Assembly: GCA_903828975.1 (NCBI GenBank)
Contig: CAIKOD010000028.1
Location: 1 to 38,079, forward strand
Length of the DNA stretch: 38,079 nucleotides
Direction of reading: 5' to 3'
From: an uncultured Methanomicrobiales archaeon
GTDB lineage: Archaea; Halobacteriota; Methanomicrobia; Methanomicrobiales; Methanospirillaceae
In this document: piece by piece, positions 1 to 27,238 of the stretch
Position numbering within the stretch: position 1 is the first letter of the stretch
Layout: the number at the start of each line of letters is the position of its first letter
Position numbers and translations under genes: made by a program
Notes under the pieces: generated by a model
The model's input: the letters and a program-made list of their open reading frames with translations, nothing else
What the model was told of the DNA's origin: nothing
The model's database searches: none

Positions 1-318
1 ATGATATCTCCCGGAACCGGCCGGTCCTGGTTACCGGTCTGGTTCCGGGGGTTGGCGTCCCTGTATGCATCGAGCCATGATTTCAGGGCTGCCGTGTCCC
101 CGTTCTGGATAGCAGTCTTTGCTGCCGAAACATCGACGCCCTTCTGCTCAAGTTTGTCAATGATATCTCCCGGAACCGGCCGGTCCTGGTTACCGGTCTG
201 GTTCCGGGGGTTGGCGTCCCTGTATGCATCGAGCCATGATTTCAGGGCAGCCATGTCCCCGTTCTGGATAGCAGTCTTTGCTGCCGAAACATCTACCCCC
301 TGCTGTTCAAGTTTATCA
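1..318. repeat. 159-bp tandem repeat, two units
   Basis: Units run 1-159 and 160-318, and the start of a diverged sequence follows at 319. I count about seven substitutions between the units, clustered in the last third, while the first roughly 90 bp are identical. The period is a multiple of three and encodes 53 residues of the minus-strand protein. Near identity at the DNA level suggests recent duplication or homogenisation. Confidence 0.9.
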
Positions 319-1446: not shown

Positions 1447-1536
1447 TTCCCTGGGGACAAGAATCCACCAATGAACAATGTCTGTTCAATTCAGTTGTTT
1501 AAAAAAGGATAGTAAATTTCTCTTGAAATCCCGCTA

Positions 1537-2046
1537 TCAAGGGTTTATCGCCTTGAACGGGACTATTTCATCATAGGTCTTGACTTTTCCCACGGTCGGA
1601 GCGGTCACCCAGATCTCCATCCTGTTCTGGTAGGTACTGCACGGGAATGACACGTATTGCCCGACATAGAATGGTGGCAGCATAAAGTCCTGCTGTGATG
1701 ATCCGTCCGGCTTTGTGAAGATCACATCAACGCGGGAATCAAAGTTCATACCGTTTCCGCCCCGGAGTGTCACTACCATAAAGGGGTTGGCGGTATCCCC
1801 GTTACCCTGTACCATGAAATCAAGCATATAGTTAGGCGGAAGCATTTGTGTTGGCCCCGGAGTGCCCATCCCCACCTTTGGAGTGGTTGCAACCGGTGCT
1901 GTTGCCTGGGGGGGGAGCGGTGTTGCAACCGGACTTGCAACCGGGGTCTGTGTTACCGCCGGGGGTGTAGCATTCTGGGTACATCCTGCCGTTAATACGA
2001 ACGCAACAACGAGTACCAGGCTTATTACAAGGATCGAAGATTTCAT
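1537..2046 (-). CDS. Secreted lipoprotein, paralogue 1
   Basis: The 169-residue protein has a signal peptide (MKSSILVISLVLVVAFVLTAGC) with lipobox LTAGC, so it is probably lipid-anchored outside the cell. A Pro/Thr/Ala/Val linker (about 25-60) precedes a compact domain with MLDFMVQGNGDTANPFMVV, RGGNGMNFDSRVDV and a C-terminal VGKVKTYDEIV. Family function is not known to me. The next gene upstream is a close paralogue of identical length, so this is a recent tandem duplication. Upstream boxes are identical in sequence and distance in both copies. A TATA-like TTATAC ends 23 nt before the ATG, which predicts a leaderless or nearly leaderless mRNA. Confidence 0.85.
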   Translation of the reverse strand: MKSSILVISLVLVVAFVLTAGCTQNATPPAVTQTPVASPVATPLPPQATAPVATTPKVGMGTPGPTQMLPPNYMLDFMVQGNGDTANPFMVVTLRGGNGMNFDSRVDVIFTKPDGSSQQDFMLPPFYVGQYVSFPCSTYQNRMEIWVTAPTVGKVKTYDEIVPFKAINP

Positions 2047-3627: not shown

Positions 3628-3890
3628 GCCTTTGTTGAAACCCTGCGTGTTTAGAAAGAGGAAGGGAAAATATGTAGACAGGAAGGGGTTTCACCACCTC
3701 CCTGTCTCACACCCGACAAGGTATCCTTTGGGCAGGGTTCAACTCCAGTATTCCCCAAAATTTCAGAGATTAGAGAGACCAGTCCCTAATCCCGGCCGGG
3801 GCCGCCGAAGCGACGGGGTGGAGCCCCGGAAGCATGTATACGTTCCGGAATACCCGTTTGCTCACCAGGATGGATTTCAGGGGATGTCAA
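3628..3890 (+). mobile_element. MITE-like element, copy A (degenerate right end)
   Basis: The left end GCCTTTGTTGAAACCCTGC matches the other copies. It continues with a T/A-rich tract, the GGAAGGGG-TTTCA-CCACCTCC hairpin region, the internal inverted copy GCAGGGTTCAA (3732-3742), AAAATTTCAGAGATTA, and a GC-rich hairpin module with GGCCGGGG...GAGCCCCGG. The right end has decayed and ends near GATGTCAA. It lies between the convergent 3' ends of the nitroreductase and DUF4349 genes, 16 bp from the latter's stop. No protein of its own is encoded. Confidence 0.75.
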
Positions 3891-9633: not shown

Positions 9634-9995
9634 GGCTTTGTTGAAACCCTGCTTATTTTTTTTAATAAAAAAGGAAATACGTGGAGAGGAGGGGGTTTCA
9701 CCCCCTCCCTGTCCCACCCCTGTTAAGATACTCTTCGGCAGGGTTCAATTGGGACATTCAAAGAAAAAATTAAGAGATGGAGAGATCATTCCCTATCCCA
9801 ACCGGGGCCGTCAAATCGGCGGGACGGAGCCCCAGGAACGTTGGAAAATTTCGGAATAATCCTAAATAAGTAAAATTCGGGTAGAGAGTTTCCCATGAAA
9901 ATGCCTGAACGGCCCCCAATATAAGGAGATTTTTAACGAAGCATTTTCAATCGTCCGGGAGTGAATTCCCTGCTCATGTGTGTTTCAATAAAGCC
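9634..9995 (+). mobile_element. MITE-like element, copy B (full length, about 362 bp)
   Basis: The left end GGCTTTGTTGAAAC and right end GTTTCAATAAAGCC are terminal inverted repeats matching at 13 of 14 positions. Order inside: TTGAAACCCTGC (9641-9652), T/A-rich tract, perfect 9-bp-stem hairpin (9688-9708), inverted GCAGGGTTCAA (9738-9748), AT-rich spacer, conserved ATTCCCTATCCCAACCGGGG, GC hairpin with GGGGC/GCCCC (9804-9833), then TGCCTGAACGGCCCCCAATA and the right end. It has no transposase. I see no clear target duplication. It fills the gap between two convergent genes almost completely. Confidence 0.8.
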
Positions 9996-14103: not shown

Positions 14104-14259
14104 ACCGGGGTAGCGGTCGCCCTTTTTGAATTGAACATAAACTCCAGTAAGCAGGATTCCACGGATGTGTGATTAACTGTATGAAATAACACTCAATCTG
14201 AAACAGGGCATATCAGGATTATAAAGAGCAGGGAAGGGAGAAAAGTTTTAATTATATCT

Positions 14260-14588
14260 GCTTTGTTGAAACACACATGAACGGGAAGTTCACACCCGAA
14301 CCATGAAAACAGACATGATGTCAAAAGGTCACAGGCATAAGAAATGAAAATGCCAGGTTGGTTTTTTCATATTAAATGCCACGTTCAAAATCTCCTTATA
14401 TTGGGGGCCATATTGGGGGCCGTTCAGGCATTTACATGGGAAACCCTCCAAAATCTATCTTGTAGATTGGGGTATTCCAATATTTAGTCACGCTCCCGGG
14501 GTTTACGCCCCGCCGCTGTGGCGACTCCGGTTGGGATAGGGAATAGCTTTCTCTCTCTGAAATTTTCAGGAATACCCATACTATCTTT
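14260..14588 (-). mobile_element. MITE-like element, copy E (left part missing)
   Basis: In minus orientation this copy retains the ATTCCCTATCCCAACCGGAG module, the GC hairpin, the ATGCCTGAACGGCCCCCAAT segment (with GGCCCCCAATAT duplicated), and the terminal right end GTTTCAACAAAGC. The right end sits at 14260-14273 on the plus strand as GCTTTGTTGAAAC. The left module and left terminal repeat are absent; homology stops about 20 bp from the stop codon of the STAS gene. It lies between convergent genes (TauE-type and STAS) and explains most of the 500-bp gap. Confidence 0.7.
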
Positions 14589-19884: not shown

Positions 19885-19990
19885 GGTGGTCACTGGTCTG
19901 GTCTCCCTAGCTCCGGTGTGGGCTGACAAAATTGTTCCGGATAGATAGACTTTTTGAGATGAGAAGAAAAATGTGCCGATTCTGGCACTG

Positions 19991-20249
19991 TGACATGCTC
20001 TCAAATCTATCCAGGAGATCAGGGTATTCCCAAATTTAGCCACGCTCCCGGGGCCCCGCCACCCCCCTAGGCGACCCCGGTTGGATTAGGTAATGGCCTC
20101 GAAATCTCTGAATTTTTTTGGAATTATGCAGTTGAACCCTGCCCAAAGGATATCTTAATGGGGGTAGGACAGGGTGGGGGGGAAATCCCCTCGCAGTCTT
20201 ACGTTATTTTCCCTTCTTTTTTCTAACCATGCAGGGTTTCAACAAAGCC
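19991..20249 (-). mobile_element. MITE-like element, copy D (degenerate right end)
   Basis: In minus orientation the left end GGCTTTGTTGAAACCCTGC is at 20231-20249. The hairpin region is G/C-rich but imperfect. The inverted internal GCAGGGTTCAA (20132-20142) is kept, followed by TTCAGAGATTTC and CCTAATCCAACCGGGG with the GC hairpin. The right end (near 19991-20010) has decayed. Unlike most copies it lies between divergent genes, upstream of both the aminotransferase and the repeat surface protein. Confidence 0.75.
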
Positions 20250-20431
20250 CCGATCCTAAAAAAACCGTTGATGACGTAACAAGGCACCTGCTAAATCAAG
20301 CTTTCCACAGTTCAGAGGCAAATACCATCCAATCCACAATTATTTATCAATATCTTCTGATCATCCCCCTTCTCATCCGGTACGGTTTTTATACTAGCCT
20401 CTCCCAGTCAGAACTACAGGAGAAGATTCTG

Positions 20432-23164: not shown

Positions 23165-23252
23165 TGGATCTTTGGCTGGTATGAAAAACTCCAGGCAAAT
23201 ATCGGAATACCCATCTTTCTCATACTCATCTATGTGCCAAGGCCTCATAGCG

Positions 23253-23520
23253 CGTTTTGTTGAAATCCTGCATATTTTTTTTTTTAAAAAAATAGGAAAT
23301 ACGGTGACAGGAGGGGGTTTCACTCCCTCCCTGTCCCACGCCCGTTAAGATACTCATGTGCAGGGTTCAATTGGTGCATTCAAGAAAATTTCAGAGATTT
23401 GGATATCATTCCCTATCCCAACCGGGGCTGCCAAAGCGGCGGGGCGGGGCCCCGGAAGCGTGACTAAATTTTGGAATTTCCTAATCTGTGAGATTGATTT
23501 GAGAGGGTTTCCACAAAGCC
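23253..23520 (+). mobile_element. MITE-like element, copy C (internally deleted, 268 bp)
   Basis: The left end is TTTTGTTGAAATCCTGC. The T11 tract, the GGAGGGGGTTTCACTCCCTCC hairpin with one mismatch, GCAGGGTTCAA, AATTTCAGAGATTT and ATTCCCTATCCCAACCGGGG all follow in order. It then ends at GAGGGTTTCCACAAAGCC. Compared with copy B, the segment between an internal GTTTCC and the terminal GTTTCAATAAAGCC is missing, so this is a deletion form with a restored end. It lies downstream of the aldo/keto reductase gene and upstream of the AhpD-like gene. Confidence 0.75.
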
Positions 23521-26868: not shown

Positions 26869-27238
26869 CTACTCTTAACCTCTCATTTGGAAACGAGAGA
26901 AATAATAAACAACAATAATTCTTTTTCGGCTTTGTTGAAACACATATGAACTGGATGATCTTTAAAGGGCAGATTTTTCATAATCTCTTTCAAATCAAAA
27001 TCCTTTTCCATTTCATTGGACTGTAAGGATTTAAAGGATACATGAGTGAGAATCCTTATCCGTGTGAATAATGTTCCTGACCTTCAGGCAGAAACCCCCC
27101 GGGCCGCATGGAAAACCAAAACCTTATTTCTGACAAAATCAGGAATCAATCCATCCTAAGTCTCATCAAGGTGTGGGAGCCCCGGGATCACGGTGGAAAC
27201 AGCATCCGAATCGAAAGGGTCTGCACGCTCCAGCCGGT
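26869..27238. other. Intergenic region between convergent genes
   Basis: These 370 bp hold one solo end of the MITE-like family (26928-26951), described separately. The remainder shows no reading frame with a start and SD. Confidence 0.4.
26928..26951 (-). repeat. Solo terminal repeat of the MITE-like family
   Basis: GGCTTTGTTGAAACACATATGAAC matches the right terminus of copies B and E in inverted orientation, including the subterminal CATATGAAC, which matches CACATGAAC in E. No other module of the family is recognisable next to it. It could be a relic after deletion, or an end of a related element. Confidence 0.6.

What the first reader, a model, noticed from the sequence alone, without database searches (positions are those of the whole stretch)
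9634..9995. A MITE-like family of about 362 bp with GGCTTTGTTGAAAC ends, one apparently complete copy
Five related non-coding blocks occur (3628-3890, 9634-9995, 14260-14588, 19991-20249, 23253-23520), plus a solo end at 26928. The copy at 9634 has both terminal inverted repeats (GGCTTTGTTGAAAC and GTTTCAATAAAGCC, 13/14 match), all modules in order, and no protein. The ends recall termini of IS903-type (IS5 family) elements, from memory, so a trans-acting transposase elsewhere in the genome is likely. I do not recognise a described family.
Basis: partly seen in the sequence, partly recalled or inferred. Interest (0 to 1): 0.75.

Follow-up and report, generated by a model that had tools for sequence, protein, structure and literature searches.

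The report
Archaeal mini-transposon family (IS5-type MITE)
The 362-base block is one of about 140 copies of a small gene-less jumping DNA (a MITE) in a methane-producing archaeon; its ends and its 8-base footprint match a transposase-bearing insertion sequence found in the same genome, so it is a real but ordinary kind of element, unusual mainly for its copy number and its add-on end modules.

Summary
9634-9995 belongs to a dispersed non-coding family with ends GGCT(T/C)TGT(T/A)GAAA. The genome (2.58 Mb, 186 contigs) has 139 matches to its 21-base core and 123 to its 14-base end (0 in both reversed controls). Seventy-four candidate end pairs show an 8-bp target duplication (0.63 identity against 0.35 ± 0.02 shuffled; lengths 5-7, 9 and 10 only slightly raised), so it is a MITE.

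The partner is an IS5-family transposase (NF033579/PF01609). Intact ~1.0-kb ISs in Methanoregula and other methanogens have TIR GGCTCTGTAGAAA and the same 8-bp duplication. The window's genome carries pieces of such an IS at contig ends; beyond position 13 its right and left ends resemble the MITE's left and right ends respectively.

Corrections: the IS903 (9-bp) link is wrong; 8 bp fits the ISH1-like group. The focal copy has no duplication; 19984-20249 is also complete and keeps one (7/8). The family is modular: L-R1 core (~260 bp), optional R2 insert (~355 bp), and an outer ~80-bp cap ("X") that can act as the mobile end. New member of a known kind.

The parts
9634..9995 (+). Focal copy, long form (L-core-R1-R2), no target duplication
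9634..9647 (+). Left terminal inverted repeat GGCTTTGTTGAAAC
9688..9708 (+). Conserved L hairpin GGAGGGGGTTTCACCCCCTCC
   Evidence: column identity 0.9 or more
9802..9822 (+). G+C-rich conserved core (CCGGGGTCGCCAAAGCGGCGG in consensus)
9893..9981 (+). R2 module, present in long copies only
9982..9995 (-). Right terminal inverted repeat GGCTTTATTGAAAC
19984..20249 (-). Complete short-form copy with 8-bp duplication CCGATTCT (19976-19983) / CCGATCCT (20250-20257), 7/8
23253..23520 (+). Short-form copy with both TIRs
23174..23252 (+). X cap module (GGCTGGTATGAAAAACTCC ... hairpin) outside the 23253 copy
14259..14588 (-). Truncated long-form copy: core-R1-R2, left end missing
3628..3890 (+). Short-form copy, right end decayed
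26928..26960 (+). Solo R2-type end fragment

Best explanation
A non-autonomous DNA transposon (MITE) family of a Methanoregula-related archaeon. It carries no gene. A DDE transposase of an IS5-family insertion sequence (NF033579; ISH1-like by size and 8-bp duplication) recognises the GGCT(T/C)TGT(T/A)GAAA ends in trans, moves the element, and inserts it through 8-bp staggered cuts that are filled into direct repeats. Shown: the repeat family, its sharp ends, the 8-bp duplications, transposase-encoding ISs with matching ends and the same duplication length, and pieces of such an IS in the same genome. Inferred: that this IS is the helper, whether the element is cut or copied, and that the helper is still active.
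For: 139 core and 123 end matches against 0 in controls. 8-bp duplication in 74 candidate pairs, 0.632 against 0.349 +/- 0.020 shuffled, 9 perfect. Partner ISs: 48 candidate end pairs, TIR GGCTCTGTAGAAA, 8-bp duplication 0.654 against 0.400 +/- 0.024, 17 perfect; intact transposases over the NF033579 cut-off. Pieces of the IS at five contig ends of the window's genome; positions 14-18 of MITE L match the IS right end and those of R1 the IS left end. Syntenic intergene of the focal copy in congener G001 lacks the MITE.
Against: No intact helper is assembled in this genome. The commonest MITE end GGCTTTGTTGAAAC differs at two or three positions from the resident IS ends. R2 and X ends do not match the IS beyond the outer bases. 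The focal copy has no duplication.
Confidence: 0.85

Rival explanations
1. A MITE as described, but mobilised by a different, unsampled transposase whose ends are exactly GGCTTTGTTGAAAC.
For: Resident IS ends (GGCTCTATAG.., GGCTTTGTAG..) are not identical to the commonest MITE end; the assembly is fragmented.
Against: No IS6-type transposase (PF13610) in the genome; 8-bp duplication and two-ended match point to the IS5_2 group; related ISs with GGCTCTGTTGAAACCCT ends exist in the same order (L222, L241).
Confidence: 0.13
2. A structured non-coding RNA or cis-regulatory element spread across intergenic regions.
For: Folding energy z = -4.5 for the focal copy; blocks of 0.90-0.94 column identity between blocks of 0.56-0.70.
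Against: No Rfam match; consensus fold of 33 copies has 14 pairs, only 2 with any two-sided change; 8-bp duplications show that copies arise by transposition.
Confidence: 0.05
3. A segmental or recombination-driven repeat with no transposition.
For: The focal copy lacks a duplication; some copies are nested or truncated.
Against: Abrupt ends and an 8-bp duplication far above shuffles.
Confidence: 0.01

Closest known systems
Archaeal IS5-associated MITEs (ISMac15-, ISMma12-, ISMba19-, ISMbu10-associated; PMC3852290 Table 4)
   Same: Short, gene-less, multi-copy, sharing essentially only the terminal repeats with an IS5-family partner
   Different: Those have 140-252 bp and 5-24 copies with duplications of 0 or 3 bp listed; here ~260 or ~355 bp, about 140 copies, 8-bp duplication, and add-on end modules. 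Sequences were not compared.
IS5 family, ISH1-like group (e.g. ISTth7, PMC6352166)
   Same: Partner ISs are mostly ~0.94-1.06 kb with one DDE transposase gene and an 8-bp duplication
   Different: Group membership was not tested by a transposase tree or ISfinder; the MITE itself has no transposase
IS903 group of IS5
   Different: 9-bp duplication from own knowledge; 8 bp found here

Membership tests
MITE | Short, multi-copy, no transposase gene | tested here: met
   ~260/355 bp, 139 core matches, longest ORF 73 aa in the focal copy
MITE | Terminal inverted repeats with abrupt boundaries | tested here: met
MITE | Target-site duplication of fixed length | tested here: met
   8 bp; the focal copy alone lacks it
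MITE | Ends match an autonomous partner | tested here: met
   IS5_2 elements elsewhere and IS pieces in the same genome
MITE | Movement by the partner's transposase in trans | not testable with these tools
   needs an assay
IS5 family (partner IS) | IS5-type DDE transposase | tested here: met
   NF033579 190-211 bits against cut-off 140; PF01609
IS5/ISH1 group (partner IS) | About 0.9-1.15 kb with 8-bp duplication | tested here: met
IS5/ISH1 group (partner IS) | Transposase clusters with ISH1 | not tested
   no ISfinder at hand
IS903 group of IS5 | 9-bp duplication | tested here: not met
   9-bp identity 0.361 against 0.323 shuffled
IS6 family | DDE_Tnp_IS240 transposase in the genome | tested here: not met
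   0 matches
Described RNA family | Rfam match | tested here: not met

The most novel reading that the evidence does not exclude
The family gains new functional ends by capture: an outer module (X) joined outside the original inverted repeat, and an R2 module placed inside it, each then serving as or at the new boundary, so that a MITE lineage swaps ends (and perhaps helper transposases) while keeping its core.
Probability: 0.35. Interest if true: 0.5.

Novelty: new member of a known kind. Interest (0 to 1): 0.3.

Why it matters
Adds a very high-copy MITE family to methanogen genomes (about 140 copies against 2-34 for the archaeal MITEs of PMC3852290 Table 4) and names its likely helper. The core pattern was found only 1-8 times in each of three congeneric genomes, so it expanded in this lineage. 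The interchangeable end modules allow a test of how MITEs acquire ends and whether end-swapping lets them change transposase. Annotation should mask these blocks rather than call genes or RNAs in them.

Tried and rejected
IS6 helper: no PF13610 in the genome. IS903 (9-bp) link: the duplication is 8 bp. Structured RNA: no Rfam match, little covariation. Exact core string in named genomes and viral contigs: none (the window's own records may be left out there). Base-exact empty site of the focal copy in congeners: the syntenic locus was found without the MITE but the intergene is too diverged for an exact join. Paper searches found no described MITE family of Methanoregula among the titles and abstracts listed.

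Full report
Observation. Window 9634-9995 has inverted ends GGCTTTGTTGAAAC and (other strand) GGCTTTATTGAAAC and no sizeable gene. The window is contig C28 of a 2.58-Mb, 186-contig genome. BLASTN of the block lists 50 matches there; the 14-base end occurs 123 times at up to one mismatch and its reversed control 0 times; the 21-base core occurs 139 times at up to three mismatches, control 0. That is far beyond chance.

Anatomy. Listing the ends with flanks gives an abrupt boundary at GGCT(T/C)TGT(T/A)GAAA and three inner contexts: L (GAAACCCTGC..., then hairpin GGAGGGGGTTTCACCCCCTCC), R1 (GAAACCCTCTCAATCTATC...) and R2 (GAAACACACATGAACGGGAAGTTC...). Short elements (~260 bp) are L-core-R1; long ones (~355 bp) carry the R2 block within the right end. 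The focal copy is the long form. Column identity is 0.90-0.94 in the left TIR, the hairpin and the G+C-rich core, and 0.56-0.70 in the blocks between.

Transposition footprint. In 74 candidate end pairs of 150-600 bp from the fetched stretches of this genome, the flanks agree clearly only as an 8-bp direct repeat: 0.632 identity against 0.349 +/- 0.020 with right flanks shuffled, nine perfect; the other lengths tested (5-7, 9, 10) exceed shuffles by 0.04-0.06. Some pairs are overlapping or nested candidates, which should dilute rather than create the signal. Within the window, 19984-20249 keeps the duplication (7/8); the focal copy does not (3/8).

Partner. A search for DDE_Tnp_1 in this genome and relatives led to transposase fragments abutting GCTCTGTAGAAA ends, assigned to NF033579 IS5_2. 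Relatives occur in 29 of 100 genomes of the family and, in a named collection, in Methanoregula, Methanosarcina, Methanolobus, Methanococcoides and Methanoculleus among others, plus two records titled Cloacimonas/Cloacimonadota. Forty-eight candidate IS end pairs, mostly near 1.0 kb, have TIR GGCTCTGTAGAAA or close to it and an 8-bp duplication, 17 perfect at 8 and none at 6, 7, 9 or 10. Intact transposases score 190-211 bits against the NF033579 cut-off of 140. ISTth7, an IS5/ISH1-group element, is listed with 900-1150 bp and 8-bp repeats (PMC6352166).

Is the partner in this genome? Pieces of such a transposase lie at the very ends of contigs C36, C41, C54, C103 and C108. A multi-copy IS often breaks a short-read assembly this way, so intact copies are likely but were not seen. 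Its right end reads GGCTCTATAGAAACCCTAG and its left end GGCTTTGTAGAAATGCTC. Past the shared 13 bases (positions 14-18), L resembles the IS right end (3.57 of 5, against 1.93 for the left end) and R1 the IS left end (3.62 against 2.58); R2 resembles neither (1.84, 1.73). Two contig ends (C54, C41) look like the two sides of one IS insertion into a MITE at GAAATTTC; that they belong together is inference.

X module. About twenty places, in this genome and in another genus (G010), carry ~80 bp beginning GGCTGGTATGAAAAACTCC and ending in a hairpin ATGAGCC-N(2-5)-GGCTCATAGCAC directly outside an L, R1 or R2 end. Taking X as the outer boundary, the 8-bp duplication is perfect in L036 and L282 and 7/8 in L046, L279 and L292 (the best of the candidate far ends was taken for each, so this is weaker). 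X can therefore probably serve as the mobile end. The window copy at 23253 is X-capped from 23174 but shows no duplication.

Spread and age. The core pattern occurs 4, 8 and 1 times in three congeneric genomes. The syntenic intergene of the focal copy in congener G001 contains no MITE; in G003 other sequence lies between the same flanks. The listed copies are 73-86% identical to the focal one (main matches), so the expansion is lineage-specific but not all recent.

Comparison with what is known. Archaeal MITEs generally share only end segments under 20 nt with their IS partner, and several IS5-associated ones are listed with 5-24 copies (PMC3852290). This family fits that kind. I did not compare it with ISfinder, so an existing name cannot be excluded.

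Verdict. An ordinary kind of element, well supported: a new high-copy IS5-type MITE family with interchangeable end modules.

Noticed in passing
G000 contigs C36, C41, C54, C103, C108 (contig ends; L295, L297-L300): Open-frame pieces of an IS5_2 transposase at contig ends, as expected if a multi-copy IS breaks the assembly.
   Followed up: partly
L006, L036, L042, L046, L279-L292 and window 23174-23252: X module (~80 bp, GGCTGGTATGAAAAACTCC ... ATGAGCC-N-GGCTCATAGCAC) capping MITE ends in two genera; origin unknown.
   Followed up: partly
G024, G013, G053, G058 (L066-L069, L074, L075): Short matches to the L hairpin region only (query about 51-97) in other genera; may be a wider hairpin module or chance.
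   Followed up: no
window 1-318: Tandem duplication of a 159-nt unit, 96% identical, inside an ORF.
   Followed up: no
window 1501-1800 and 2129-2428: Two 300-nt copies, 84% identical, in adjacent minus-strand ORFs (1537-2046, 2165-2794): a likely tandem gene duplication.
   Followed up: no
L098 (C41:10691-13190): A different IS5-family transposase fragment (NF033581) abuts an R2-type MITE end.
   Followed up: no
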